This document shows, one piece after another, positions 47,126-61,167 of a stretch of DNA of 64,000 bases. The notes beneath the pieces were generated by a model. That model had not been told where the DNA came from. It ran no database searches and was given only the letters and a program-made list of their open reading frames with translations. Positions within the stretch are counted from its first letter, which is position 1. Each line of letters opens with the position of its first letter. Made by a program: the position numbers and the translations under genes. The DNA comes from Streptomyces sp. NBC_01460 (GTDB lineage Bacteria; Actinomycetota; Actinomycetes; Streptomycetales; Streptomycetaceae): positions 6,572,001-6,636,000 of the forward strand of contig NZ_CP109473.1 of NCBI RefSeq assembly GCF_036227405.1, written 5' to 3'.

Positions 47126-48226
47126 TCAGCCGCCGGTCGCCGGCGACTTCTTGGCCGACTCGGGGATCGTGCCGTCCGTCCGGATGGCCTTCCAGAGGTC
47201 GCCGGCCTGGGGCTCGGAGGCCACCACGCGGTTGGGGTCCTGCTTGTCGTAGGCGACGGGCAGCATGATCGTCTCCATGGCGGAGGGATCGACGCCGTTC
47301 ATCGAGCGCGCGAACTCCGCGAGCGAGGTCAGGGAGGCGAGCCCCTCGTCGGTCGTGAGCGACTTGGTCGCGGAGTTGGCGATCTTGTAGGTGCTCGTCG
47401 GACTGCCCAGCAGGTCCTGCGACTTGATCTCCGTCAGCAGGGCGAGCAGGAACTGCTGCTGGAGCCCGATGCGGCCGAGGTCGCTGCCGTCGCCGACGCC
47501 GTGGCGGGTGCGGACGTAGGCGAGCGACTCGATGCCGTTCAGCCTGTGCGTGCCGGCGGTCAGGTCGAGGCCCGAGGCCTCGTCCTTGATCGGCTCCTCG
47601 ACCTTGACGGTGACCCCGCCTATCGCGTCGACGAGGTCCTTGAACCCGGCGAAGTTGATCTCCAGGTAGTGGTCGATCCGGACCCCGGACATCTTCTCCA
47701 CGGTCTTGACCACACAGGCCGGACCGATCTGCGAGTAGACGGAGTTGAACATGACCCGGTTCGCGGACGCCGTCTTCGAACCGTCGGCCTTGACGCACTC
47801 GGGCCGGGTCACCAGGGTGTCGCGCGGGATGGACACCGCCGTGGCCTCGGTGCGGCCCTCGGGTATGTGCACCACCAGTGCGGTGTCGGAGCGCGCCCCG
47901 CTGACGGCGCCGCCCCCGCCCAGCTCCTTGTTCTCCGCCCCGGCGCGCGAGTCGGAGCCGAGGACGAGCAGGTTCTGACCGGTGGTGGGGAGCTTCTCGG
48001 GGCGGTCCTCGCCGAGGGCCTTGTTGATGTCGACGCCCTTGATGTTGCCGTCGAGGTCCTGGTACATCCAGTACGCCGTGCCGCCGCCCGCGAGCAGGAG
48101 CACGAGGAGGACCCCGAGTGTGATCCTGAGTCCGCGGCGGCGCTTGCGTTCCTTCTTCCGGCCCCGCTTCGGAGCTTCCGCCCGTCGGGAGGCGCGCCGT
48201 CCTGGAGGCATGACGTCGTTGCTCAT
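47126..48226 (-). CDS. LytR-CpsA-Psr (LCP) protein, short form
   Basis: 366 residues. A very basic cytoplasmic N-terminus (KRGRKKERKRRRG) and one membrane helix (about 34-54) precede an extracellular LCP domain with LLVLGSDSR, RSDTALVVHI, VSIPRDT and YVRTRHG. The Arg/Asp set binds the polyprenyl pyrophosphate of the glycopolymer substrate. It lacks the LytR_C extension of the LCP protein at 17.4 kb. A -10-like TATAGT on the minus strand (48327-48322) lies about 100 nt upstream. It is adjacent to, and divergent from, a teichoic-acid-like locus, whose product it may ligate to peptidoglycan. Confidence 0.92.
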   Translation of the reverse strand: MSNDVMPPGRRASRRAEAPKRGRKKERKRRRGLRITLGVLLVLLLAGGGTAYWMYQDLDGNIKGVDINKALGEDRPEKLPTTGQNLLVLGSDSRAGAENKELGGGGAVSGARSDTALVVHIPEGRTEATAVSIPRDTLVTRPECVKADGSKTASANRVMFNSVYSQIGPACVVKTVEKMSGVRIDHYLEINFAGFKDLVDAIGGVTVKVEEPIKDEASGLDLTAGTHRLNGIESLAYVRTRHGVGDGSDLGRIGLQQQFLLALLTEIKSQDLLGSPTSTYKIANSATKSLTTDEGLASLTSLAEFARSMNGVDPSAMETIMLPVAYDKQDPNRVVASEPQAGDLWKAIRTDGTIPESAKKSPATGG

Positions 48227-48517: not shown

Positions 48518-49603
48518 ATGCTCGGACAGGATGCCCGCGCGACCCCGAGGGTTGCTTCCGGGGCAGGCGCGTTGCAGGGCATCTGGCTCACCCGGGGCAA
48601 GGAGGGCCGTCTCACGGCGTACGCGTCGGCCGAGGGCGGACTCAGGCGCTGGACCGAGAGCCGGCCCGGGAGTCCGGACTGGGGGCGGTCCACGCTCGTC
48701 CCCATGCCAGGTCTCACCCATCTGTCCGTCACGCAGGACGACAGCGCCTACGTGCACTTCGTCGGACGCCGCGAGCGCAGAACCGCTGACCGTCGGACCG
48801 TCGTGGACATCGTGCACGCCCTTCAGTACCAGTCGGGGCGTCCGGTCACCGAGTGGCGTTCGCTGGGAAATCCGCACAAGGGTGCCGACGATGCCGCCAG
48901 GCTCGGCCCGCCGGCCGCGGTGGTGACGACCGCGGGAATGGTGCACATCTTCGTCCGGAACGCGGACGGTGGCCTGGCGCTCCGGCGGGAACAGAGCGAC
49001 GGCAAGTGGCGTGGCTGGGAGGACCGCAAGGGCGTGGCCGGCATCGAGGGGGGCCTCGCCGCCATCGCCCTTTCCTCGGGCCGTATCGAGTTGTTCGCGA
49101 CCACGGCCGACGGGACGCTGCACTGGTTCCAGAAGGAGGCCGGCGGAGGGCTGGGGGACGGGTACCCGTCACGTCTCGCGGTGTCCCAGGACACCTTGGC
49201 GGTCCTGGAGACCGGGCCCGACCGGCCCACTTTCTACTGGACCGATCCGGGTGGCCGTGGAGTTGTCGCCTACCGGGCGGGAGGGTGGCCCATGGCTCTG
49301 GGCGGCGCACCGGGCGAGGGCGCCCATGGGGCGGCCCGCGCCTTCCTGGACGGCTACGACTGCACGGTGCTGGCCCATCGCGGCGCGGAGGGGACCGCCG
49401 TGGTGGGGGTGGGTGTCACCGAGGGGGAGGACAACGGTGTGTGGTGGTCGGACACAGGGGTGCGATGTCTGGCCGCACCGGCGCTCGCACAGGACGCGTT
49501 CGGCAGGCTCGTGGTGGCGGTCATCGACGAGCAGGGAACCCCGAAGGTGGCCAGGCAGACAGACGGGCCGGGGCTGACGCTCTCGGAATGGTGCGCTCTC
49601 TGA
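48518..49603 (+). CDS. Beta-propeller (PLL-like) protein
   Basis: 361 residues built of repeated units with Gly-Trp-Trp-Asp/His spacing: LTAYASAEGGLRRWTES, VHIFVRNADGGLALRREQ, IELFATTADGTLHWFQKE, FYWTDPGGRGVVAYRAGG and VGVTEGEDNGVWWSD. This is the pattern of PLL/fucolectin-like seven-blade propellers, which bind sugars. No signal peptide, as in the genes downstream. ATG at 48518 is used; GTG at 48506 is possible. It precedes a GT2-glycerophosphotransferase gene by 342 nt with its own promoter, so it may be a separate unit. Sugar binding is inferred. Confidence 0.6.
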   Translation: MLGQDARATPRVASGAGALQGIWLTRGKEGRLTAYASAEGGLRRWTESRPGSPDWGRSTLVPMPGLTHLSVTQDDSAYVHFVGRRERRTADRRTVVDIVHALQYQSGRPVTEWRSLGNPHKGADDAARLGPPAAVVTTAGMVHIFVRNADGGLALRREQSDGKWRGWEDRKGVAGIEGGLAAIALSSGRIELFATTADGTLHWFQKEAGGGLGDGYPSRLAVSQDTLAVLETGPDRPTFYWTDPGGRGVVAYRAGGWPMALGGAPGEGAHGAARAFLDGYDCTVLAHRGAEGTAVVGVGVTEGEDNGVWWSDTGVRCLAAPALAQDAFGRLVVAVIDEQGTPKVARQTDGPGLTLSEWCAL

Positions 49604-49765
49604 CATCCGCACGGGCGGAACGTCCGGCCTCACGTCCGCGTCGCGGCGCTTGAGGCCTTCTCCGTCAGATCGACCGGCGGCATCTATGGTTGTGCGCCGG
49701 GGAGTATGGCGTGTGTCACGCGCTTCTGTCGAGAGCAATGCATGATCTTGTGCTGAATCTGCACA

Positions 49766-49793
49766 TTGACATCCTTTAATGTTCACTTAAGAT
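49766..49793 (+). promoter_or_regulatory. Sigma-70/HrdB-like promoter of the teichoic-acid-type operon
   Basis: TTGACA (49766-49771), a 16-nt spacer and TAAGAT (49788-49793), in AT-rich DNA rare in this window. It lies about 150 nt upstream of the GT2-TagF start. The remaining 5' part of the 342-nt gap shows nothing else recognisable. Confidence 0.6.
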
Positions 49794-49945
49794 TTGCGTT
49801 TGAAGCGACAGTTCGAGAGCTGAGCCGCGAGGCGCTCGACGGGGGTGCCCGATTGCGGGTCGAAGGCGACTCGACCGGGCGGTGCGCGGAAGCTGGGAAT
49901 CGAAGGGGTGCAGGTGCTCTCCTGCCTCGAACTGGAGTGTGAATA

Positions 49946-52900
49946 ATGGATGCTGGGCTGCCCCGCTTGAGTGTCATCGTCCCGTTCCAGGACGTGGAGA
50001 TCTACCTCGCGGAGTGCCTGGAGTCCATTGCGCGGCAGACGTTCCGCGACTTCGAAGTGATCATGGTCGACGACGGATCGACGGACTCGTCCACGGCGAT
50101 AGCGGAGGGGTTCTGCGCCGAGGACCCCCGCTTCCGGCTGATACGCCAGGAGGCGAACGGCCCCGGGCACGCGCGCAACACCGGGCTGCGCGCGATGCAT
50201 CCGGCCGGCGAGTTCCTGGTGTTCGCCGACGGCGACGACGTCATTCCCGAGTACGCCTACGAACTGCTCATCCGCACACTCTCCGAGTCCGGATCGGATT
50301 TCGTCTCCGGAAACGTGCAGATGATGAATTCCACGACGAAGTGGCAATCCCCCCTCCACAAGGGGCCGATGCAGCGGGACCGCAAGGGCACCCACATCAC
50401 GCGCTTCGAGGCGCTCATCTATGACCGCACCGTCTGGAACAAGGTGTTCCGGAGGAGCTTCTGGGACTACCACTTCATCCAGTTCCCCGAAGGGGTTCTC
50501 TACGAGGACTCCTGGGTCAACATGTTCGCTCACTTCAAGGCCGCCAAGGTCGATGTCATCACCGACATCGTCTACTTCTGGCGAAGACGGGACGGCGGAG
50601 CCGCCCCGTCGATCACCCAGAGACACACCGAGCTCAGCAACCTCCAGGACCGTGTCGCGGCGGTCCAGTCCGTGAGCCGCTTCCTCGGGCAGCACCGCTC
50701 ACGCTCGTTCCGGGACCACAAGCGGAAGTACGACCTCGCCTGCCTGAAGTCGGACCTGATGCTGCACCTGAAGGTCCTTCCCGACGCCGACGAGGAGTAC
50801 CGGGACGCCTTCATGTACGCGGCCCAGGACTTCCTCGGTGAGGCTGACGACGACATCATCGACGAACTCCCGGCGGATGCCCGGGTCAAGTGGCTCCTCG
50901 TCCACCAGGGCCGGCTCGGCGAGCTCCTGGACGTTCTCGAGTTCGAACGGAAAGGCGGCCCGCTGCCTGTCCGCAGGCGGTTCCGCCGTTACCTGAACTA
51001 CCCTCATCTGGGCAACCGGGAGACGGGCCTCTACAAGCGCGACTACCGGCTCGACAAGGAGCTGTCGCCCTTCAGTTCGCTCACGGGCGCGCAGTGGAAG
51101 GGTGAGTGGCTCACCCTGACCGGATCCGCCTATGTGCGCTTCATCAACGTGCACAAGCGGCACATGTCCACGAAGATGCTGGCCCTGCGGAACAAGAAGA
51201 CGGGCAACACGCTCGTCAACCTGGCACGGACCGTCTACTACCCGCAGGCCACCGAGTACTCGAACCAGAACCGTTACTGCTACGACTGGGCAGGCTTCGA
51301 AAGCCGCTTCGACACCACGCGTCTCAAGAAGAAGGGTGAGTGGGTCGAGGGCACCTGGGACGTCGCGGCAGGTGTCTTCAGCCGCGGGCTGTTCCGCTAC
51401 AAGAGCATCGGACGCGGTGGGGCGGGCGTCGCCGCCAACCCGCCGATCCGCTATGTGGACAAGAACACGCGCATCGTGCCGCTCTTCGTCCAGGGCGGTC
51501 TCAAGATCCGCGTCGAGAGAGTGCGCTGCCGCATCACCAGGCACCGCGTGGCCGGCCAGTATCTCGAGCTGGGAGGCGTCTACCTCGGACCCAAGATCCC
51601 GGAGTGGGGAAAGCTCCGCGTCACCAGCATGAACGGTGCGGGGCGGCACGACGCCTGGATGTCCTTCCAGCCCGGCGGCGAGGGGTGGTGCACCTTCGTC
51701 GCCCGGATCCCCCTGAACAACCTGGTGCCCGGCTCGCGGGGATCGGGCGACGGATCCGTACCGCAGGCATGGACCATGGGAAGCAACGGCTGGAAGACGA
51801 CCGTCCATCTGGAAGGGCGTAAATCACCGCTGTACCCCGTGATGGCCGAGGACACGGACGACGGGCACTATCGGATGCCCGAAGGGCTGCAGACCGACGA
51901 CGGCGACCGCGAGATCGTCGCCCACCGCAACGGTTCGGGCTACGTGGTCCTCTTCGAGCGCTCCGCCCTGCCCCTGGTCACCGACTACTGCTGGCGCGAG
52001 GACGGTTCACTCGAGATCATCGGCCGGTACTCCTGTGCGGACCGGCTGACCCCGCACGAGAGGAGCGCCGCCCACCTGGTCGTACGGTCACGCGCCCATG
52101 GCGCCGAGCGCGCGGTGGCCGTCGAATGGGACGGTCCTCGCTTCCGCTGTGTGGTCACCCCCGCGGCGATGCGGACCCTCGCAGGGGCCATCCCGCTCGC
52201 CGCGGGCCGCTGGGACTTCTTCCTGCGTCGTCAGGACCCCTCCGAGGTGTCGCCGGACGAGCGCCTGCCGGACCTCATGCTCAAGATCGAGCAGAGCCTC
52301 ATCAGTACCTTTCCGCAGGAGGTCGAGACGCACGGCAGGGGGTACGACCTCCAGGCCGAGGCCTACGACCGGCTGTCGCTGCTCGTCCGCTCCGCGATGG
52401 CCGAGGACGCCCGGGGGCCGTACCGCCAGAAGCTGCTGCGCACCAGGAGCTACCCCCAGGCCCGTCGGCAGCCGATCAGGCCCGCCGTGCTGTTCGACGC
52501 CTTCAAGGGCACCCAGTACTCGGACAGTCCACGAGCCGTCCACGAGGAACTGGTCCGGCGCGGAGTCCCGCTGGAGCACCTGTGGGTGGTCCGCGACGAC
52601 CAGGTCCAGGTGCCTCCGACAGCGAGGGCCGTCCGCATGTGGTCGTCGGAGTGGTACGAGGCGCTGGCCACCTCCCGTTACGTCGTCGCGAACAACCATC
52701 TCCCCGACTGGTTCGAGAAGCGCGCGGAGCAGGTGGTCGTGCAGACCTGGCACGGCACCCCGCTCAAGAAGATCGGCCACGACATCGAGGCCGTCCACTT
52801 CGCCGACCAGCGCTATCTGGAACGGGTGGCGAAGGAGGTCCAGAACTGGGACATGCTGGTCTCCCCGAACAGCTTCTCCACGCCCATCCTCAAGCGGGCC

Positions 52901-53752
52901 TTCCAGTTCCCCGGGGAGATGGTCGAGTGCGGCTACCCCCGCAACGACATCCTGCGTCGCCCTGGCACGGAGCGGCGTGCGGAGGAGATCAGACAGCGCA
53001 TCGGACTGCCGGCGGGGAAGCGCATCATCATGTACGCACCCACCTGGCGCGACGACCAGTTCTACGCACCCGGCAAGTACAAGTTCGACTTCCGGATCGA
53101 CCTCGACGACGCCCGCAGACGCCTCGGTGACGATCACGTGCTGATGGTCCGCCGGCACCCCAACGTCGTGGACCCGGTCCCGGGCGCCGGGGACGGTTTC
53201 GTCTTCGACGTGTCCGACTACCCGGACATGGCGGATCTCTCCCTCATCACCGATGTGATGATCACGGACTACTCGTCCCTGATGTTCGACTTCGTCAACA
53301 CCGGACGTCCCATCCTGTTCTTCACCTACGACCTGGACCACTACCGGGACACGCTCCGGGGCTTCTACTTCGACTTCGAGCAGAGCGCTCCCGGGCCGCT
53401 GCTGTTCGAATCGGCTGAACTCATCTCCGCGATCGAGGACATCGACCGCATCCAGGAGGGGTACGCCGACCGCTACCAGTGGTTCCAGGAGGAGTTCTGC
53501 GACCTGGACGACGGGTACGCCTCCGCCCGCCTGGCGGATCACATCCTCGTCGCCGGAGGCGATCTCGACCCGTCCCGGCCCCAGGCCCCGGCGACGGAAG
53601 CGCACGGGCCCGCCGGCGACCGCGGGTTCCTGTCGCGGGCCGGCAACGACGCGGTGAGGGCGGTCCTGCATGCGGAGAGCGACGTACGGCAAGCCCCGTA
53701 CCCCCCGGCCGGATCGCAGTCCCAGGTGAGAATGGATTCCGCACATGTCTAA
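49946..53752 (+). CDS. GT2 glycosyltransferase-TagF/TagB glycerophosphotransferase fusion
   Basis: 1268 residues. Residues 7-230 are a GT-A family 2 glycosyltransferase (LSVIVPFQDVEIYLAECLES; VDDGST 41-46; FADGDD with the DxD at 95-97). Residues about 330-800 are beta-rich with no family I can name. Residues about 840-1200 form a CDP-glycerol glycerophosphotransferase (Glyphos_transf) domain, with TWHGTPLKKIG, MYAPTWRDDQFY, VRRHPN and MITDYSSLMFDF as the catalytic His/Asp motifs of TagB/TagF. It would build a poly(glycosyl)glycerol-phosphate wall polymer at the inner membrane face. ATG at 49946 behind GGAG. Its end overlaps the next gene by 8 nt (ATGTCTAA). Confidence 0.9.
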   Translation: MDAGLPRLSVIVPFQDVEIYLAECLESIARQTFRDFEVIMVDDGSTDSSTAIAEGFCAEDPRFRLIRQEANGPGHARNTGLRAMHPAGEFLVFADGDDVIPEYAYELLIRTLSESGSDFVSGNVQMMNSTTKWQSPLHKGPMQRDRKGTHITRFEALIYDRTVWNKVFRRSFWDYHFIQFPEGVLYEDSWVNMFAHFKAAKVDVITDIVYFWRRRDGGAAPSITQRHTELSNLQDRVAAVQSVSRFLGQHRSRSFRDHKRKYDLACLKSDLMLHLKVLPDADEEYRDAFMYAAQDFLGEADDDIIDELPADARVKWLLVHQGRLGELLDVLEFERKGGPLPVRRRFRRYLNYPHLGNRETGLYKRDYRLDKELSPFSSLTGAQWKGEWLTLTGSAYVRFINVHKRHMSTKMLALRNKKTGNTLVNLARTVYYPQATEYSNQNRYCYDWAGFESRFDTTRLKKKGEWVEGTWDVAAGVFSRGLFRYKSIGRGGAGVAANPPIRYVDKNTRIVPLFVQGGLKIRVERVRCRITRHRVAGQYLELGGVYLGPKIPEWGKLRVTSMNGAGRHDAWMSFQPGGEGWCTFVARIPLNNLVPGSRGSGDGSVPQAWTMGSNGWKTTVHLEGRKSPLYPVMAEDTDDGHYRMPEGLQTDDGDREIVAHRNGSGYVVLFERSALPLVTDYCWREDGSLEIIGRYSCADRLTPHERSAAHLVVRSRAHGAERAVAVEWDGPRFRCVVTPAAMRTLAGAIPLAAGRWDFFLRRQDPSEVSPDERLPDLMLKIEQSLISTFPQEVETHGRGYDLQAEAYDRLSLLVRSAMAEDARGPYRQKLLRTRSYPQARRQPIRPAVLFDAFKGTQYSDSPRAVHEELVRRGVPLEHLWVVRDDQVQVPPTARAVRMWSSEWYEALATSRYVVANNHLPDWFEKRAEQVVVQTWHGTPLKKIGHDIEAVHFADQRYLERVAKEVQNWDMLVSPNSFSTPILKRAFQFPGEMVECGYPRNDILRRPGTERRAEEIRQRIGLPAGKRIIMYAPTWRDDQFYAPGKYKFDFRIDLDDARRRLGDDHVLMVRRHPNVVDPVPGAGDGFVFDVSDYPDMADLSLITDVMITDYSSLMFDFVNTGRPILFFTYDLDHYRDTLRGFYFDFEQSAPGPLLFESAELISAIEDIDRIQEGYADRYQWFQEEFCDLDDGYASARLADHILVAGGDLDPSRPQAPATEAHGPAGDRGFLSRAGNDAVRAVLHAESDVRQAPYPPAGSQSQVRMDSAHV

Positions 53753-55292
53753 CGCAGCTCCGGCCGGCCGCAGAATCTTCACCGGTGTGGAAGCGTCGGG
53801 GAAGTTCCCCATCGACTACAAGTTCACGCATGCGAGAAACGGCAACCGGCGCCTGATGGTCGTCTTCGCCAACCTCAACGCGCCCGACGAGTACGGGTGG
53901 GGCAACGGAGTGCTCGACAAGACGCGGTCCAACATCCTCTGGATACGCGACAAGTTCGACGGTGTGAACAGTTACTACCTCTGCAAGGAGATGGACTTCT
54001 CGCTGGAGGAGTCCGTCATCGGTCTCATCTCCCGCGTCATGCACGCACTCGAACTGACCCCGGACGACTGCATCATGTTCGGCAGCTCGAAGGGCGGCAC
54101 GGCCGCCCTGTACTACGGCCTGAAGTACGGTTTCCGCGACATCGTCGCCAGCGTGCCCCAGTTCGCGATCGGCTCCTTCGTGAGGGAGCACATGAAGCCC
54201 ACCGCCCGCTTCATGATGGGCGAGGGAGTGCCGGAGCACAACGTCGAGATCATCGACTCGCTGCTCCCCGACACGGTGTGGCGGAGCAGTAACCGCAATG
54301 CCAACATCTACCTGATCTCCTCTCCGCAGGACGAGCAGTACAAGCAGCATGTCGAGCCGTACATCGGGCACTTCCGCGATTACACCAACTTCAACTTCAT
54401 CTACAACGACTCCCCCCTCATCGCCGGGCACGGCAAGGTGACCCTGCGGAACCTCCCCGTCATGCTGGGGCTGGCCAACCTCCTCGTCGACGGTGTCACC
54501 CCGCGCATCGGAACCATCCGCAACGGGTACGAGCAGCCGGACCGCAGCACCACGGGCATCGACGACTACCTCAAGTCGACGTCCCGGCTCAAGGACACGT
54601 TCACCGCGCCCACCGTCCACACGCCGGTATCGGGCGGGACGACACCCGGGCGGATGGTCGCGTTCACCGGATCGGCACCCGGCGCGGTGCGGGTGAGCCT
54701 CTGGGAGAACGGGAAGTTCCTGTCGTCCCCCCAGGTGGGGCCCGACGGTAACTGGAGCTGGGACCCGGACCGCGACTGGTCGGTGGGCAAGCATGTCATC
54801 CGCCTGTTCGCGGTGGACGCCGCCGGCTACCACTCCCCGCGGACCGAGGTCGTCTTCAGCGTCCCGGAGAGGAGTGCCGCTACGGTGCCGGCGGCTCCGA
54901 CTCCGGCTCCGGGCCGCGCGGAGGACCTGATGGGCACGGGCCCGCTGTTCTCCGCCCAGGCGCCGATGACGCCTCCCCTCGCACCGGTGGTCGCGGCACC
55001 GGCACCTGGCCAGCAACTGCCGGGAACCGCCGTCGCCTTCAGTGGCTATGCTCCTGGCGCGGTCCGGGTCGAGTTCGGCGAAGCCGGTGCGGCTCTGGGC
55101 GCCAGCCACGTCACGCCGGAGGGCACCTGGGTCTGGGAATCCGGCTGGGCGTGGGCCGAGGGCCCGCACACGGTCGAGTGCTTCTCCGTGGACGCGTCCG
55201 GCAACCCGTCCCGCCCGGTCCCGATCGCCTTCACCGTGGTGAACGTCTACGCCGTGCCGGCGAACGGCGCGTACCTCGACGGGCGTTACTGA
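53745..55292 (+). CDS. Asp2/XcbB-like alpha/beta hydrolase with two Ig-like domains (copy 1)
   Basis: 515 residues, no signal peptide. Residues 10-250 look like an alpha/beta hydrolase: nucleophile elbow GSSKGG (113-118) with Ser115, candidate Asp196 in SSPQDEQ and His229 in AGHGKV, a triad in correct order. The fold recalls Asp2 and XcbB/CpsF, which serve glycan acylation or capsule synthesis. Residues 289-376 and 413-505 are two Ig-like repeats (APGAVRVSLWENGK; APGAVRVEFGEAG). It overlaps the TagF-fusion gene by 8 nt, so they are coupled. A paralogue follows 42 nt later. Acyl transfer to the teichoic-acid-like polymer is inference. Confidence 0.72.
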   Translation: MSNAAPAGRRIFTGVEASGKFPIDYKFTHARNGNRRLMVVFANLNAPDEYGWGNGVLDKTRSNILWIRDKFDGVNSYYLCKEMDFSLEESVIGLISRVMHALELTPDDCIMFGSSKGGTAALYYGLKYGFRDIVASVPQFAIGSFVREHMKPTARFMMGEGVPEHNVEIIDSLLPDTVWRSSNRNANIYLISSPQDEQYKQHVEPYIGHFRDYTNFNFIYNDSPLIAGHGKVTLRNLPVMLGLANLLVDGVTPRIGTIRNGYEQPDRSTTGIDDYLKSTSRLKDTFTAPTVHTPVSGGTTPGRMVAFTGSAPGAVRVSLWENGKFLSSPQVGPDGNWSWDPDRDWSVGKHVIRLFAVDAAGYHSPRTEVVFSVPERSAATVPAAPTPAPGRAEDLMGTGPLFSAQAPMTPPLAPVVAAPAPGQQLPGTAVAFSGYAPGAVRVEFGEAGAALGASHVTPEGTWVWESGWAWAEGPHTVECFSVDASGNPSRPVPIAFTVVNVYAVPANGAYLDGRY

Positions 55293-55334
55293 CGCGGCTG
55301 CGCGGCCCCCCACCAGATCGGAGACTCCCGAACC

Positions 55335-56849
55335 ATGTCCACACCAGCTTCCGCCGGCGCCCCGCTCAGCGGCATCGAGACGTCCGGGACGTACCCGGTC
55401 CAGTATCGCTTCTCCCACGCGAAGAAGGGCAACCAGCACCTGGTGGTGGTCTTCGCCAACTTCGCCGCTCCTGATGACTACGGCTGGTCGAACGGGGTCT
55501 TCGGCAGCCTCCGGTCCAACATCCTGTGGATCCGGGACCAGTTCGACGGCCACAACAGTTACTACCTCTGCAAGGGTATGGACTTCGACCTGGAGCGGTC
55601 CGTCGTCACCCTGATATCGAACGTGATGACGTCGCTGGGCCTCACACCGGACCAGTGCACCATGTGGGGCGGCTCCAAGGGCGGCAGCGCGGCCCTCTAC
55701 TTCGGGCTGAAGTACGGGTTCCGCAACATCGTTTCGATCGTCCCGCAGTTCCGGATCGGCACCTACCTGGAAAAGCACCCGAAGGTCGCCGAGTACATGA
55801 TGGGACAGGTCACGGAGACCAACGTCCGCATTCTCGACAACGTGATCGCCGACCTGGCACGTGCCGGGGCGAACCGCGGTGCCAACATCTATGTGCTGTC
55901 CTCACCGCAGGACGAGCAGTGGCCGGTGCAGGTGGAGCCCTATCTCGGGCTGTTCAACGGCTACGAGAACTTCAACGTCATCTTCAGCGACTCCCCCCAC
56001 ATTCCCGATCACACCCAGGTGACCCGGCGGAACGTGCCGGTGCTCATGGGGTTGATCAACTTCCTCATCGACGGCATGGCTCCGCGCCTCGGCTTCGCCG
56101 TGAACGGCAGAGAACAGCCGGATGCCGACAGGTCCGGCATCGACCGCTACCTCGACGAGACGTCGCAGGTGCGCTCGTCCTTCCCCGCGCCGGTGGTCTT
56201 CACGCCTTCGCCAGGCCAGGTCCACGCACAGACCGCGCAGTTCACCGGCTCCGCGCCCGGCGCGGTGCGTGTCAGTTTCTGGGAACACGGCAAGTTCCTG
56301 GGATCGCCCAAGGTCGCGCCCGACGGCACATGGTCCTGGGACCTGGGCAGGCCCTGGTCCCAGGGCGACCACGCCGTTCGTGTCTTCGGTGTGGACGCCA
56401 CGGGTTTCGCCTCCCCGGCAGCCGACATCCCGTTCACCGTCCCGGCACCAGGATCCGCTCCGGTGGGCATGCTCCCTGAGCCCGGGCTCCCGGTACCGGC
56501 ACAACCCGGGACCGGTGTGGCCGCCCCGGGGCCGGTGATCTCGGTGCCGGCCGCCGGCCAGCAGATGCCGGGCCCGGTCATCGGACTCATGGGGTACGCG
56601 GCGGGCGCGGCGCAGGTGGAGTTCGTCGAGGACGGTATGCGGCTGGGGGCCGCGCCGGTCGAGCCTGACAGCAGGTGGTCCTGGGAATCCGGTTGGTCCT
56701 GGGCCGAGGGCCGGCACACCGTGGAGTGCTACGCGGTGGACATGCACGGCAACCTGTCCCAGCCTTCCGTGGTCACGTTCGGCGTGGTGTACGCCTACGC
56801 CTCACCGGCGGCTGATTCGCACCTCATGCAGGGGCACCGACCTGGATGA
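55335..56849 (+). CDS. Asp2/XcbB-like alpha/beta hydrolase with two Ig-like domains (copy 2)
   Basis: 504 residues, a tandem paralogue of the preceding protein along its whole length, roughly half identical in the hydrolase part. Nucleophile elbow GGSKGG (112-117), Ser114; Asp193 in SSPQDEQ; His226 in IPDHTQV. The same two C-terminal Ig-like modules follow (SAPGAVRVSFWEHGKF; DGTWSWDLGRPW). No signal peptide. ATG at 55335, 42 nt after copy 1, on the same strand. Its last 26 nt overlap the end of the convergent EEP gene. Duplicated catalytic genes suggest two related substrates or a hetero-oligomer. Confidence 0.72.
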   Translation: MSTPASAGAPLSGIETSGTYPVQYRFSHAKKGNQHLVVVFANFAAPDDYGWSNGVFGSLRSNILWIRDQFDGHNSYYLCKGMDFDLERSVVTLISNVMTSLGLTPDQCTMWGGSKGGSAALYFGLKYGFRNIVSIVPQFRIGTYLEKHPKVAEYMMGQVTETNVRILDNVIADLARAGANRGANIYVLSSPQDEQWPVQVEPYLGLFNGYENFNVIFSDSPHIPDHTQVTRRNVPVLMGLINFLIDGMAPRLGFAVNGREQPDADRSGIDRYLDETSQVRSSFPAPVVFTPSPGQVHAQTAQFTGSAPGAVRVSFWEHGKFLGSPKVAPDGTWSWDLGRPWSQGDHAVRVFGVDATGFASPAADIPFTVPAPGSAPVGMLPEPGLPVPAQPGTGVAAPGPVISVPAAGQQMPGPVIGLMGYAAGAAQVEFVEDGMRLGAAPVEPDSRWSWESGWSWAEGRHTVECYAVDMHGNLSQPSVVTFGVVYAYASPAADSHLMQGHRPG

Positions 56850-57732
56850 TCAGGGCCGAGTGGTCCGACGCCCCCGTGCCGCGGACGGAGCAGCCGGTCC
56901 TCGGCAACGCGGTGAACAGGTAATCGACCTTGTGGCCGGTGCTGTGCGTGGCCCTGCCCGCACGTGACGCGGGCGATCTCTGGTCGCATTCCCGGTAGGT
57001 CCGGTAGGCGGCGTACGGCCAGATCCAGCTGTCCCTGTCGGCGCTCCGCGGCGGTGCGCTGTTCAGGTCGCCGCCGAACACCGTGCGCTCATCCGCCGCA
57101 CCCACCAGTGACTTCAGCTGGTCGTCGCGGAACTCCCGGTCGGCATGCGCCCGGTCACCGTTCGGCAGACTGAGATGTGCGTTGCACACCCGCACGGCGA
57201 GGGCGGCCGCCGTCGCGCAGACGATCCCCCGGTGCAGCCCGACCGCCGGCTGCCGGGTGGACACCACCGACACCTCGGTGAGCGGAGAGAGCGCGAGAAG
57301 CGCCAGGCCCGCCGTCCCTCGGCGCGCTTCCGCGCACCGGACGGCGGTGCGCCGGCCCTCGGCGTCCTGGACGGCATAGGGCAGAAAGGTGCTGTGCCAG
57401 TCCTCTCCCAGCTCATTCCGGGCGTCGGTGAGGTCGCCGGCACAGACTTCCTGCAGCATCACCACGTCCGTGCGGTCGCTGCCGGCCAGCCGTTTCAGCG
57501 CACGGATCTTCTCGGTACGGGTTCCGGTGCTCTCACAGTTCCACTGCAGGACCCCGCACATGTTCCAGGTCGCGATACGCAGGTGCCCCGGCGCGGCGTC
57601 CGGGGCCCACGCCCGGGTGGCGTGCAGCGGCTGCGACAGCCCGAGGAGGAGGGCGCACACCGTCAGCACCGGCCACCTGCGGTGGAGCGGCGCTGCGGGG
57701 CCCTTCGGTAGCTTTCCGGCGCGACGCCGCAT
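56824..57732 (-). CDS. Secreted endonuclease/exonuclease/phosphatase-family protein
   Basis: 302 residues. The signal peptide (RRWPVLTVCALLLGLSQPL) is cleaved near ARAWA. The EEP fold is intact: Asn57 in ATWNMCG, Glu95 in MLQEVC, a histidine/asparagine pair in CNAHLSLPNGD, GGDLNSAPP and the final GTGASDHSALI. These are the metal-dependent active sites shared by DNase I-like nucleases, sphingomyelinases and phosphatases. Cys pairs suggest an extracellular, disulphide-stabilised enzyme. ATG at 57732 chosen so that the signal peptide is N-terminal. It could hydrolyse DNA, phospholipid or a phosphodiester polymer. Confidence 0.82.
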   Translation of the reverse strand: MRRRAGKLPKGPAAPLHRRWPVLTVCALLLGLSQPLHATRAWAPDAAPGHLRIATWNMCGVLQWNCESTGTRTEKIRALKRLAGSDRTDVVMLQEVCAGDLTDARNELGEDWHSTFLPYAVQDAEGRRTAVRCAEARRGTAGLALLALSPLTEVSVVSTRQPAVGLHRGIVCATAAALAVRVCNAHLSLPNGDRAHADREFRDDQLKSLVGAADERTVFGGDLNSAPPRSADRDSWIWPYAAYRTYRECDQRSPASRAGRATHSTGHKVDYLFTALPRTGCSVRGTGASDHSALIIQVGAPA

Positions 57733-57768
57733 GACCTGTTCTTCCCGCCTGCCCGAGCCCGAACGGGA

Positions 57769-57802
57769 ACGGGCCGTACGGAAATGATCCCGTACGGCCC
57801 GT
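57769..57802 (-). terminator. Terminator of the fadBA operon
   Basis: A perfect 13-bp stem (57769-57781 with 57790-57802) and an 8-nt loop, 19 nt past the fadB stop. Confidence 0.88.
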
Positions 57803-57820
57803 CCATGGAGAAATTCGCGG

Positions 57821-59950
57821 CTACGCCGGAACGCTCGCCACACCCTGCGCGAGGAACGGCTTGCCGTTCACCCGCTGCGAGACACCCTCGCGGTCCAGGT
57901 ACGGCGTGATGCCGCCCAGGTGGAAGGGCCAGCCGGCGCCCGTGATCAGGCAGAGGTCGATGTCCTGGGGCTCGGCGACGACGCCCTCGGCGAGCATCAG
58001 GCCGATCTCCTGCGCCACCGCGTCCAGGACGCGGTCACGGACCTGCTCCTCCGTCAGGACGGTGTCGCCCTGCTTCAGGAGGGCGGCGACCTCGGGGTCC
58101 AGCTCCGGCTTGCCGGAATCGTAGACGTAGAAGCCGCGCTTGCCGGCCTTGACGACCGCCGCGAGGTTCTCGGAGACCGTGAAGCGGTCCGGGAACGCGC
58201 GGTTCAGGGTCTCGGAGACGTGCAGACCGATCGCAGGGCCGACCAGCTCCAGGAGCACCAGCGGGGACATCGGCAGGCCGAGGGGCTCGATGGCCTTCTC
58301 CGCCGTCTCGACCGGGGTGCCCTCGTCGATGATGTTCTGGATCTCGCCCATGAAGCGGGTGAGGATGCGGTTGACGACGAACGCCGGGGCGTCCTTCACC
58401 AGGACCGCGGTCTTCTTCAGCTTGCGGGCGACACCGAAGGCCGTGGCCAGCGAGGCGTCGTCCGTCTGCTCGCCGCGGACGATCTCCAGGAGCGGGAGGA
58501 TCGCGACCGGGTTGAAGAAGTGGAAGCCGACGACCCGCTCGGGGTTCTTCAGCTTCGAGGCCATCTCGGTGACCGAGAGGGACGAGGTGTTCGTGGCGAG
58601 GATCGCGTGCGCCGGGGCGACCGCCTCGACCTCCGCGAACACCTGCTGCTTGACGCCGATCTCCTCGAAGACGGCCTCGATGATGAAGTCGGCGTCGGAG
58701 AAGCCCTCCGCCTTGTCCAGCACACCGGAGACCAGGGCCTTCAGGCGGTTGGCCTTGTCCTGGTTGATGCGGCCCTTGCCGAGCAGCTTGTCGATCTCGG
58801 CCTGGACGTAGCCCACACCCTTGTCGACACGCTCCTGGTCGATGTCCGTGAGGACGACCGGGACCTCCAGGCGGCGGAGGAAGAGCAGCGCGAGCTGGCT
58901 GGCCATCAGGCCCGCGCCCACGACGCCGACCTTGGTGACCGGACGGGCCAGGGCCTTGTCCGGTGCGCCGGCCGGGCGCTTGGCGCGCTTCTGGACCAGG
59001 TTGAAGGAGTAGATCCCGGAGCGCAGCTCGCCGCCCATGATCAGGTCCGCGAGGGCCTGGTCCTCGGCGTCGAAGCCGGCGCCCAGGTCACCGCTCTTGG
59101 CCGCGGCGATGATCTCCAGCGCGCGGTACGCGGCCGGGGCCGCCCCGTGCACCTTGGAGTCGGCGACGGCCTTACCGCGCGCGACGGCCTGGTCCCAGGC
59201 GTCACCGCGGTCGACCTCGGGCCGCTCGACCGCGATCTCGCCCTTGAGGACGGACGCGGTCCAGATCAGCGACTGCTCCAGGAAGTCCGCGCCCTCGAAG
59301 ATCGCGTCGGCGATCCCGAGCTCGAAGACCTGCTTGCCCTTGAGCTGACGGTTCTGGTTGAGCGAGTTCTCGATGATCACCGAGACGGCGCGGTCGGCGC
59401 CGATCAGGTTCGGGAGCAGCGCGCAGCCGCCCCAGCCGGGGACCAGGCCGAGGAAGACCTCGGGCAGCGAGAACGCCGGCAGCGCGCTGGAGACGGTGCG
59501 GTAGGAGCAGTGCAGACCGATCTCCACACCGCCGCCCATGGCCGCGCCGTTGTAGTACGCGAAGGTCGGGACCGCGAGGCCGGACAGGCGGCGGAAGACG
59601 TCGTGGCCGCCCTTGCCGATGGCCAGCGCGTCCTTGTGGTCCTTGAGGAGCTCGACGCCCTTGAGGTCCGCGCCGACCGCGAAGATGAACGGCTTGCCGG
59701 TCACACCGACGCCGACGATCGTGCCCTCGGCCGCCTCCTTCTCGACCTGGTCGACGGCGGCGTCCAGGTTCGCCAGCGACTGCGGGCCGATGGTGGTCGG
59801 CTTGGTGTGGTCGAAGCCGTTGTCCAGCGTGATGAGCGCGAAGCGCCCCGCACCGCCGGGCAGGTCGAGGTGGCGTACGTGCGCCTGCGTGACGACCTCG
59901 CCGGGGAACAGCTCGGCCGCACCCTTCAGAAGCTCAGTGGTGGAGCTCAC
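57821..59950 (-). CDS. fadB: Fatty-acid oxidation complex alpha subunit (enoyl-CoA hydratase/3-hydroxyacyl-CoA dehydrogenase)
   Basis: 709 residues. Residues 1-300 form a crotonase domain (AAMGGGVEIGLHCSY; LVPGWGG). Then comes the NAD-binding 3-hydroxyacyl-CoA dehydrogenase (VGVVGAGLMASQLAL near 330; ILATNTSSLSV; VVGFHFFNP with the catalytic histidine) and two C-terminal dehydrogenase modules. It performs the hydration and second oxidation of beta-oxidation. GTG start whose TGA-side overlaps the upstream thiolase stop by 4 nt (GTGA), so it is coupled to fadA. Terminated by a 13-bp hairpin. Confidence 0.95.
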   Translation of the reverse strand: MSSTTELLKGAAELFPGEVVTQAHVRHLDLPGGAGRFALITLDNGFDHTKPTTIGPQSLANLDAAVDQVEKEAAEGTIVGVGVTGKPFIFAVGADLKGVELLKDHKDALAIGKGGHDVFRRLSGLAVPTFAYYNGAAMGGGVEIGLHCSYRTVSSALPAFSLPEVFLGLVPGWGGCALLPNLIGADRAVSVIIENSLNQNRQLKGKQVFELGIADAIFEGADFLEQSLIWTASVLKGEIAVERPEVDRGDAWDQAVARGKAVADSKVHGAAPAAYRALEIIAAAKSGDLGAGFDAEDQALADLIMGGELRSGIYSFNLVQKRAKRPAGAPDKALARPVTKVGVVGAGLMASQLALLFLRRLEVPVVLTDIDQERVDKGVGYVQAEIDKLLGKGRINQDKANRLKALVSGVLDKAEGFSDADFIIEAVFEEIGVKQQVFAEVEAVAPAHAILATNTSSLSVTEMASKLKNPERVVGFHFFNPVAILPLLEIVRGEQTDDASLATAFGVARKLKKTAVLVKDAPAFVVNRILTRFMGEIQNIIDEGTPVETAEKAIEPLGLPMSPLVLLELVGPAIGLHVSETLNRAFPDRFTVSENLAAVVKAGKRGFYVYDSGKPELDPEVAALLKQGDTVLTEEQVRDRVLDAVAQEIGLMLAEGVVAEPQDIDLCLITGAGWPFHLGGITPYLDREGVSQRVNGKPFLAQGVASVPA

Positions 59951-61167
59951 TTGTTGCCTCCGTTGAAGTTCGGGTTCTCCCAGACGACCGTCGCGCCCAT
60001 GCCGAAGCCGACGCACATGGTCGTCAGGCCGTAGCGGACCTCCGGCTGCTCCTCGAACTGGCGGGCCAGCTGAGTCATCAGGCGGACGCCGGAGGAGGCG
60101 AGCGGGTGACCGTAGGCGATCGCGCCGCCGTACTGGTTGACGCGCTGGTCGTCGTCGGCGATGCCGTAGTGCTCCAGGAAGGCGAGCACCTGCACGGCGA
60201 AGGCCTCGTTGATCTCGAAGAGACCGATGTCCTCGATGGAGAGGCCGGCCTTGGCCAGGGCCTTCTCCGTCGCCGGGATCGGGCCGTAGCCCATGACCTC
60301 GGGCTCGACACCCGCGAAGGCGTACGACACGAGGCGCATCTTGACCGGGAGGCCCAGCTCGCGGGCGGTCTCCTCGGAGGCGAGCAGCGAGGCGGTGGCG
60401 CCGTCGTTGAGACCCGCGGCGTTACCGGCCGTCACGCGGCCGTGGGCGCGGAAGGGGGTCTTCAGACCGGCCAGGGACTCCAGTGTGGTGCCCGGGCGCA
60501 TCGGCTCGTCGGCGGTGACCAGGCCCCAGCCCGTCTCGCCCGCCTCGGCGTTGGTGCGGCGTACGGAGACCGGCACGAGGTCCTGCTGGATCTTGCCGTT
60601 GGCGTAGGCCTTGGCGGCCTTCTCCTGCGAGCGGACCGCGTACTCGTCGGCGCGCTGCTTGGTGATCGAGGGGTACCGGTCGTGCAGGTTCTCCGCGGTC
60701 ATGCCCATGAAGAGGGCGGACTCGTCGACCAGCTTCTCCGACACGAGGCGCGGGTTCGGGTCCACGCTCTCGCCCATCGGGTGGCGGCCCATGTGCTCGA
60801 CACCGCCCGCGATGACGACGTCGTACGCGCCGAAGGCGATGGAACCGGCCGTCGCGGTGACGGCGGTGAGGGCGCCCGCACACATGCGGTCGATGGAGTA
60901 ACCGGGCACCGACTGCGGCAGACCGGCCAGGATCCCGGCGGTGCGCCCGAGGGTGAGGCCCTGGTCGCCGATCTGGGTGGTCGCGGCGATGGCGACCTCG
61001 TCGATCTTCGCGGGGTCCAGGTCCGGGTTGCGGCGCAGCAGCTCCCGGATGGCCTTCACGACGAGATCGTCGGCGCGGGTCTCGTGGTAGATGCCCTTCG
61101 GGCCCGCTTTGCCGAACGGGGTGCGGACGCCGTCGACGAAGACGACGTCCCGGATGGTACGAGGCAC
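59947..61167 (-). CDS. fadA: Acetyl-CoA C-acyltransferase (thiolase)
   Basis: 406 residues. Nucleophile Cys96 in DRMCAGAL, second-site histidine in YGHPLASSG and acid/base cysteine in TMCVGFGMGA. It cleaves 3-ketoacyl-CoA to acetyl-CoA, the last step of beta-oxidation, as partner of FadB. GTG start at 61167 behind GGAGGAG. First gene of the fadA-fadB pair, with a 4-nt overlap between them. The 214-nt gap upstream holds its promoter and no other gene. Confidence 0.95.
   Translation of the reverse strand: MPRTIRDVVFVDGVRTPFGKAGPKGIYHETRADDLVVKAIRELLRRNPDLDPAKIDEVAIAATTQIGDQGLTLGRTAGILAGLPQSVPGYSIDRMCAGALTAVTATAGSIAFGAYDVVIAGGVEHMGRHPMGESVDPNPRLVSEKLVDESALFMGMTAENLHDRYPSITKQRADEYAVRSQEKAAKAYANGKIQQDLVPVSVRRTNAEAGETGWGLVTADEPMRPGTTLESLAGLKTPFRAHGRVTAGNAAGLNDGATASLLASEETARELGLPVKMRLVSYAFAGVEPEVMGYGPIPATEKALAKAGLSIEDIGLFEINEAFAVQVLAFLEHYGIADDDQRVNQYGGAIAYGHPLASSGVRLMTQLARQFEEQPEVRYGLTTMCVGFGMGATVVWENPNFNGGNK

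What the first reader, a model, noticed from the sequence alone, without database searches (positions are those of the whole stretch)
48518..56849. Possible new cell-wall glycopolymer locus: propeller, GT2-TagF fusion, paired hydrolases
A promoter drives a 1268-residue GT2/glycerophosphotransferase fusion that overlaps the first of two paralogous Asp2/XcbB-like proteins. A beta-propeller protein is upstream and an LCP ligase is divergent. Together these would make, modify and attach a polymer. Seen: domain order, overlap, duplication. Known: TagF and LCP roles in teichoic-acid synthesis and attachment. Inferred: that the hydrolases modify this polymer.
Basis: partly seen in the sequence, partly recalled or inferred. 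Interest (0 to 1): 0.75.

Follow-up and report, generated by a model that had tools for sequence, protein, structure and literature searches.

The report
Swappable surface-polymer locus in Streptomyces
The genes look like one interchangeable kit for building, acetylating and attaching a sugar-phosphate wall polymer, sitting at a chromosomal spot where different Streptomyces carry quite different kits, much as capsule types are swapped in other bacteria.

The parts
47126..48226 (-). LCP (LytR-CpsA-Psr) phosphotransferase, 366 aa; left flank of the variable interval, probable ligase for the polymer
   Evidence: Pfam LytR_cpsA_psr E 4e-47; best matches of 63-100% identity in 52 of 150 Streptomyces, the rest at most 58%; directly upstream of and co-directional with the polymerase in six loci, five titled Kitasatospora and one Streptomyces sp. 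(56-62% identity, orthology not tested)
48518..49603 (+). PLL-type beta-propeller lectin-like protein, 361 aa; present at the site with and without polymer cassettes, so membership of the pathway is open
   Evidence: PDB 8q82 E 5e-7; PF26607/PLL names of relatives; AlphaFold2 pLDDT 89.4, first 22 Foldseek rows PLL/PHL lectins; start codon shared by relatives; in 44 of 51 LCP-positive and 28 of 40 LCP-negative stretches
49766..49793 (+). sigma-70-type promoter TTGACA-16-TAAGAT upstream of the polymerase
   Evidence: same pattern upstream of the polymerase in 10 of 18 type A loci, background 0.005 per 400 bp
49946..53752 (+). GT2 (GT-A) plus TagF-like glycerophosphotransferase polymerase, 1268 aa
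   Evidence: Pfam; PDB TagF 3l7i E 2e-101 and TagF-like capsule polymerase Cps3D E 2.5e-31
53745..55292 (+). H1: CsaC/Asp2-like alpha/beta-hydrolase-fold protein, probable O-acetyltransferase (about 1-260), plus two Big (Ig-like) domains; 515 aa, no hydrophobic N-terminus in a hydropathy scan
   Evidence: 8-nt overlap with the polymerase gene
55335..56849 (+). H2: paralogue of H1, same domain layout, 504 aa
   Evidence: falls in a different clade from H1 (quick tree)
56824..57843 (-). EEP (endonuclease/exonuclease/phosphatase) family protein; possible secreted phosphodiesterase; true start likely inside this ORF
   Evidence: Pfam Exo_endo_phos E 1.7e-17; beside the acetyltransferase in 45 of 51 named loci; N-terminal hydropathy above 2.0 in 9 of 16 and above 1.6 in 14 of 16; five active-site motifs (recalled) in the window protein, but the His motif as written in only 5 of 16 and the Glu motif in 15 of 16
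57821..60016 (-). FadB-like 3-hydroxyacyl-CoA dehydrogenase; right flank, not part of the pathway
   Evidence: Pfam; match at E 0 in 149 of 150 Streptomyces; next gene outward (a thiolase by Pfam) is of the same family in 44 of the 46 loci where the stretch reached it

Best explanation
The window carries one cassette (called type A here) of a swappable surface-polymer locus bounded by an LCP ligase gene and fadB. Proposed steps. (1) The GT2-TagF protein alternately adds a sugar (GT-A domain) and glycerol phosphate (TagF domain) to a lipid-linked primer, giving a poly(glycosyl-glycerol phosphate). [quoted passage not shown] (3) The polymer is exported by an ABC transporter coded elsewhere, for example the ABC-2 permease/ATPase pair in the genome's main TagF cluster. 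(4) The LCP protein attaches it to peptidoglycan. (5) The EEP enzyme, probably outside the cell, trims or recycles phosphodiesters. The PLL-like propeller may bind the glycan but is not shown to belong. Shown here: gene content, folds, catalytic residues, conserved linkage, cassette swapping. Inferred: every chemical step, substrate and location.
Against: No enzyme was assayed and no polymer is known. H1/H2 fall below the curated cut-offs of Asp2 (21.9 and 16.4 of 28 bits) and XcbB/CpsF (60.2 and 65.9 of 125 bits); CsaC's H201 and R148 are not kept. Ig-like domains are usual outside cells (general knowledge), and the absence of a signal peptide rests only on a hydropathy scan. Six of 18 type A loci mapped have no LCP in the stretch. 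PROP occurs in 28 of 40 LCP-negative stretches, 23 of them among the 34 without any polymer gene, so it does not track the cassette. A close relative by flanks, L211, does carry type A (LCP 95%, FadB 98%, polymerase 90%), and on the LCP tree types are more clustered than chance (28 changes, shuffled 35.0, 0 of 200 as low). No exporter, primer or CDP-glycerol gene was recognised in the cassette. G006, L223 and L224 lack PROP, EEP and LCP. The FadB tree is weakly resolved (10 of 52 branches starred).
Confidence: 0.7

Rival explanations
1. H1/H2 are esterases (hydrolases) that remove acyl groups, rather than transferases.
Against: The CsaC and Gap123 entries stand about 3 Z units above the esterases. 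The Gln that extends the CsaC triad is kept in 45 of 48 relatives. No hydrophobic N-terminus in 17 H1-like proteins; 7 of 12 H2-like ones reach 1.6 within the first 60 residues but none 2.0.
Confidence: 0.16
2. The pair modifies a surface glycoprotein (an Asp2-like role) or an unattached exopolysaccharide, not a wall polymer; the LCP gene is just a neighbour.
For: The Gap123 chain is an almost equal structural match; the LCP gene occurs in many genomes with other cassettes and is not near the cassette in 6 of 18 mapped type A loci and 13 of 51 named ones.
Against: The H genes overlap or follow a TagF polymerase. LCP is directly upstream of and co-directional with the polymerase in six Kitasatospora-type loci. 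LCP-positive loci hold polymer cassettes of any type far more often than LCP-negative ones.
Confidence: 0.14
3. This is a redundant copy of the ordinary wall teichoic acid polymerase; the diversity at the site is only neutral gene turnover.
For: The same genome has five more Glyphos_transf genes in one cluster at 3.34-3.36 Mb, four of them with a GT2 domain.
Against: The window polymerase forms its own group (63-100%; next full-length matches 47%). The replacements at the site are mostly again polymer-making sets (43 of 51 LCP-positive loci), while the outer neighbour of fadB is the same in 44 of 46 loci.
Confidence: 0.12

Closest known systems
CsaC/SacC, capsule O-acetyltransferase of Neisseria meningitidis serogroup A (PDB 6yuo; PMC7501274, abstract and passages seen)
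   Different: H201 is Tyr/Phe/Trp and R148 is not kept; two Big domains added; duplicated; beside a TagF polymerase
Asp2/Gap2 of the accessory Sec system (PDB 6oyc, Gap123 complex; that its chain B is the Asp2 homologue is recalled; PMC5578698 and PMC7948813, search listing only)
   Different: below the Asp2 Pfam cut-off; C-terminal Big domains; beside a polymerase
TagF-like capsule polymerases of Gram-negative bacteria (PMC8262930, abstract and passages seen)
   Same: GT-A domain N-terminal to a TagF domain in one protein
   Different: in a Gram-positive cassette beside LCP; donor and acceptor untested
utr/TUA locus of Streptomyces griseus, umbrella-toxin receptor (PMC13274773, sections 8 and 9 and passages seen)
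   Same: variable wall-glycan genes across Streptomyces; O-acetyl groups
   Different: different genes and site (beside ribosomal L21/L27 genes); sugar-acid polymer on ribitol teichoic acid
PLL/PHL lectins of Photorhabdus (PDB 8q82, 6rgr)
   Same: propeller fold; relatives carry PF26607
   Different: 16-20% identity over the top rows, sugar binding untested, in a polymer locus and in other loci fused to a PIG-L deacetylase
Capsule (cps/K) loci with constant flanks, such as in pneumococcus (recalled)
   Same: different polymer cassettes exchanged between fixed neighbours
   Different: flanks are an LCP ligase and a fatty-acid oxidation gene; in Streptomyces; wall polymer rather than free capsule expected

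Membership tests
TagF-like multidomain polymerase | Glyphos_transf domain above Pfam cut-off | tested here: met
   363.4 bits against cut-off 22.1
TagF-like multidomain polymerase | GT-A (GT2) domain N-terminal to TagF | tested here: met
   104.8 bits against 23.3, residues 9-171
TagF-like multidomain polymerase | makes poly(glycosylpolyol phosphate) in vitro | not testable with these tools
   needs enzyme assay
CsaC-type O-acetyltransferase | alpha/beta-hydrolase fold close to CsaC | tested here: met
CsaC-type O-acetyltransferase | Ser-His-Asp triad | tested here: met
   S115 48/48, D196 47/48, H229 48/48; Ser and Asp aligned with CsaC, His placed by its motif only
CsaC-type O-acetyltransferase | Gln and Tyr of the triad extension | tested here: met
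   Gln139 45/48, Tyr77 47/48, aligned with Q138 and Y79
CsaC-type O-acetyltransferase | His201 and Arg148 | tested here: not met
   Tyr/Phe/Trp at the His201 place; Arg not among the five commonest letters at the Arg148 place; so a relative, not a CsaC orthologue
XcbB/CpsF family (NF033892) | NCBIfam cut-off 125 bits | tested here: not met
   60.2 and 65.9 bits
Asp2 (PF16929) | Pfam cut-off 28 bits | tested here: not met
   21.9 and 16.4 bits
LCP phosphotransferase | LytR_cpsA_psr domain | tested here: met
   160.6 bits against 24.6
PLL lectin | PLL-type propeller fold | tested here: met
   top Foldseek row 6rgr E 3.4e-16, TM 0.76/0.80; PDB sequence hit E 5e-7
PLL lectin | sugar binding | not testable with these tools
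   needs glycan array
Variable surface-polymer (cps-like) locus | constant flanks with different polymer-gene sets between them | tested here: met
   six cassette types, a remnant or none among 51 LCP-positive loci; Pfam of one representative per family
Variable surface-polymer (cps-like) locus | cassette type not explained by descent of the flanks | tested here: met
   FadB tree 37 changes, shuffled 36.5, 131 of 200 as low; LCP tree 28 against 35.0, 0 of 200 as low, minimum 7, so weakly clustered there
utr/TUA locus | beside ribosomal L21/L27 genes | tested here: not met
   flanks here are APC permease, NYN-like, LCP, FadB and thiolase

The most novel reading that the evidence does not exclude
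The LCP-fadB interval is a general 'serotype' locus of Streptomyces: a fixed wall ligase serves whichever polymer cassette recombines in, and the cassette present sets sensitivity to phages and to lectin-guided umbrella toxins. Species reported to be umbrella targets although they lack the TUA genes would then be recognised through this polymer. One listed relative of H1, SAM40697_5228 (P0126), is from S. ambofaciens, a species named as such a target; its neighbourhood was not seen and the paper used another strain.
Probability: 0.35. Interest if true: 0.87.

Novelty: new variant of a known kind. Interest (0 to 1): 0.72.

Why it matters
Little is known about which wall polymers Streptomyces make and why they vary. 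A single interval with fixed flanks and interchangeable polymer kits would give a simple genomic read-out of surface type across the genus, a tractable place to change surface chemistry in laboratory strains, and a candidate for unknown receptors of phages and umbrella toxins. The acetyltransferase with Ig-like domains, and a PLL-like propeller fused to a PIG-L deacetylase in other cassettes, suggest that polymer-modifying enzymes carry glycan-binding modules, which can be tested directly.

Tried and rejected
Considered and dropped: (a) that the LCP gene is part of the type A cassette only: rejected, close matches are in 52 of 150 genomes, most of those fetched with other cassettes. (b) That the locus is the published utr/TUA locus: rejected by its flanks. 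(c) That the locus is the SCO2578 (PdtA) neighbourhood, my first guess from memory: rejected by the neighbours. SCO6020 as the orthologue of the LCP gene is recalled, not tested; a search for SCO6020-SCO6024 gave three papers, two on Cronobacter and one LCP review that lists SCO6020. (d) That Ig-only matches are members: of the 26 matching genomes, nine had only the Ig part and five only about 40% identity over the first 260-300 residues; both kinds were left out of the 12. (e) That the propeller is a cassette gene: not borne out (44 of 51 LCP-positive, 28 of 40 LCP-negative stretches).

In five LCP-positive loci (G046, G019, G074, G069, G115) the stretch did not reach FadB. 'Polymer gene' families were chosen by me from Pfam results on one representative each; the type D TagF-like representative hit is weak (31 bits) and the type B GDSL and Big_13 hits are below cut-off. 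The Fisher values (2e-16; 2.6e-11 with PGA counted) ignore kinship. G056 is counted among the 43 although it keeps only a 248-aa piece of the polymerase. My gene caller is home-made. The LCP tree has 51 loci plus 4 of a second draw; the FadB tree kept 55 of 57 labelled rows, left out six loci and added PGA and type F rows. The search across the class (197 genomes) and order (197 genomes) found no full-length relative outside the genus, although one search found Kitasatospora, so those draws are not exhaustive. Papers: searches listed nothing on this locus; I judged by titles and abstract starts, most subscription journals are not held, and two papers on SCO2997 and PdtA could not be read.
Full report
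OBSERVATION. The window lies in a genome of 8.8 Mb at G000:C1:6572001-6636000; its relatives are named Streptomyces. Gene order is APC permease, NYN-like protein (weak Pfam hit below cut-off), LCP (minus), PLL-like propeller (plus), GT2-TagF (plus), H1 (plus), H2 (plus), EEP (minus), FadB (minus), thiolase (minus).

THE POLYMERASE. The 1268-aa protein has Glycos_transf_2 at 9-171 and Glyphos_transf at 846-1201. PDB relatives are TagF (E 2e-101), the TagF-like capsule polymerase Cps3D and several GT2 enzymes. [quoted passage not shown] The window protein has the first layout, so a poly(beta-glycosyl-glycerol phosphate) is the natural prediction; donor sugar and linkage are untested.

CONSERVED UNIT. 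In 150 Streptomyces genomes, 26 match H1; 12 have full-length relatives. The same 12, and only they, have full-length polymerase matches of 63% or more. Eight lie between LCP and FadB; G053, G039, G042 and G006 carry the set elsewhere, and in the first three the LCP-FadB site holds no cassette. Of 60 loci of named genomes, 51 have the full-length or nearly full-length protein: polymerase in 50 (the 51st, L201, is cut by its contig), EEP in 45, PROP in 40, LCP in 38, FadB in 32. The other nine have only the N-terminal part; none has the polymerase at 55% or more, but all nine have FadB in the stretch. In six loci (five titled Kitasatospora, and L218 titled Streptomyces sp.) an LCP gene of 56-62% identity is directly upstream of and co-directional with the polymerase, without FadB or PROP, a different arrangement that argues for a functional tie. 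The promoter and the 8-nt overlap recur.

CASSETTE SWAPPING. In 51 loci with a close LCP match the interval holds: type A (this window; 8), type B with Stealth-type and GT4 transferases (14), type C with a CDP-alcohol phosphotransferase and a two-GT2 plus TagF protein, in part of them also GDSL, Big_9 and phosphodiester glycosidase genes (9), type D with a protein that weakly matches TagF and a propeller of the five-bladed phage type, in 5 of 7 also an IspD-SDR fusion of TarIJ-like layout (7), type E with polysialyltransferase-like and NeuB genes, in 2 of 3 a cytidylyltransferase of the CMP-sialate kind (3), type F with a chitin-synthase-like GT2 and a polysaccharide deacetylase (1), a polymerase remnant (1), or no polymer gene (8). 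Of 40 LCP-negative loci, 34 hold no polymer gene of my list, one has type F and five have PGA_cap, Mur-ligase-like and NlpC-type families (not every gene in each). Window LCP/FadB identity is 94/97% with G029 (type D), 93/98% with G071 (PROP only) and 91/95% with G064 (type B), but 83/93% with G126 (type A, polymerase 86%); L211, close by flanks (95/98%), has type A. On the LCP tree types change 28 times (shuffled 35.0, 0 of 200 as low, minimum 7); on the FadB tree 37 times (shuffled 36.5, 131 of 200 as low). So cassettes move independently of the right flank and are only weakly tied to the left one. Outward of FadB the neighbour is the thiolase family in 44 of 46 loci, inward it is one of 28 families.

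THE PROPELLER. It is at the site in 44 of 51 LCP-positive and in 28 of 40 LCP-negative stretches, so it does not track the cassette. Yet it accompanies type A where that set lies elsewhere in five genomes. Its role is open; a glycan-binding role is an inference from the PLL fold.

RECURRENT THEMES. Modifying enzymes differ, but their attachments recur: Ig-like domains on the CsaC-like protein (type A) and, with hits below cut-off, on a GDSL-like protein in some type B loci; a separate Big_9 protein beside GDSL (types C and D); a PLL-like propeller fused to a PIG-L deacetylase in five type B loci (one of them scanned). Enzymes of phosphodiester-acting families recur too: EEP in A and in two B loci, NAGPA in five C loci. 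I infer that the modules hold the glycan for modification and that the EEP and NAGPA enzymes remodel it.

MISSING STEPS. I recognised no exporter or linkage-unit gene in the cassette. The same genome has a TagF cluster with an ABC-2 permease and ATPase pair at about 3.36 Mb, a plausible exporter.

KNOWN AND NEW. A variable wall-glycan locus of Streptomyces, utr/TUA, is published as a receptor of umbrella toxins, beside ribosomal L21/L27 genes (PMC13274773, sections 8 and 9 and passages). That paper reports targets, S. ambofaciens and S. achromogenes, that lack TUA genes. One H1 relative is listed as SAM40697_5228 of S. ambofaciens (P0126); I did not see its neighbourhood, and the paper used another strain. 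The searches listed no paper on the LCP-fadB locus. As a kind, a swap locus with constant flanks is known from capsules (recalled); this one is new in its flanks, host and parts.

Noticed in passing
L007:7920-9224 (conjugative plasmid of Leclercia): Relatives of the CsaC-like domain (about 40% identity in the listed rows, annotated 'accessory Sec system protein Asp2') occur on 56 plasmid records, nearly all of enterobacteria; in the one read it sits near genes annotated as capsule biosynthesis, so the Asp2 label is probably wrong.
   Followed up: partly
L164:4877-8884, L143:7677-8891, L161:14818-15888: Five of 40 LCP-negative genomes have members of a PGA_cap, Mur-ligase-like, HAMP and NlpC/P60 set at the same site, which looks like a poly-gamma-glutamate-type capsule cassette.
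   Followed up: partly
L105:5523-7511: A PLL-like propeller fused to a PIG-L (GlcNAc-PI de-N-acetylase) domain; proteins of this length are in five type B loci.
   Followed up: no
L108:4586-12455, L120:8395-11387: Polysialyltransferase-like and NeuB genes between LCP and FadB in three Streptomyces genomes (type E).
   Followed up: partly
L087 (G056): A 248-aa piece of the GT2-TagF polymerase (85% identity) beside LCP, with no other type A gene between LCP and FadB: a decayed cassette.
   Followed up: no
L044:14920-15696: G131 carries a second, 40% identical CsaC-like gene beyond FadB in addition to the type A cassette.
   Followed up: no
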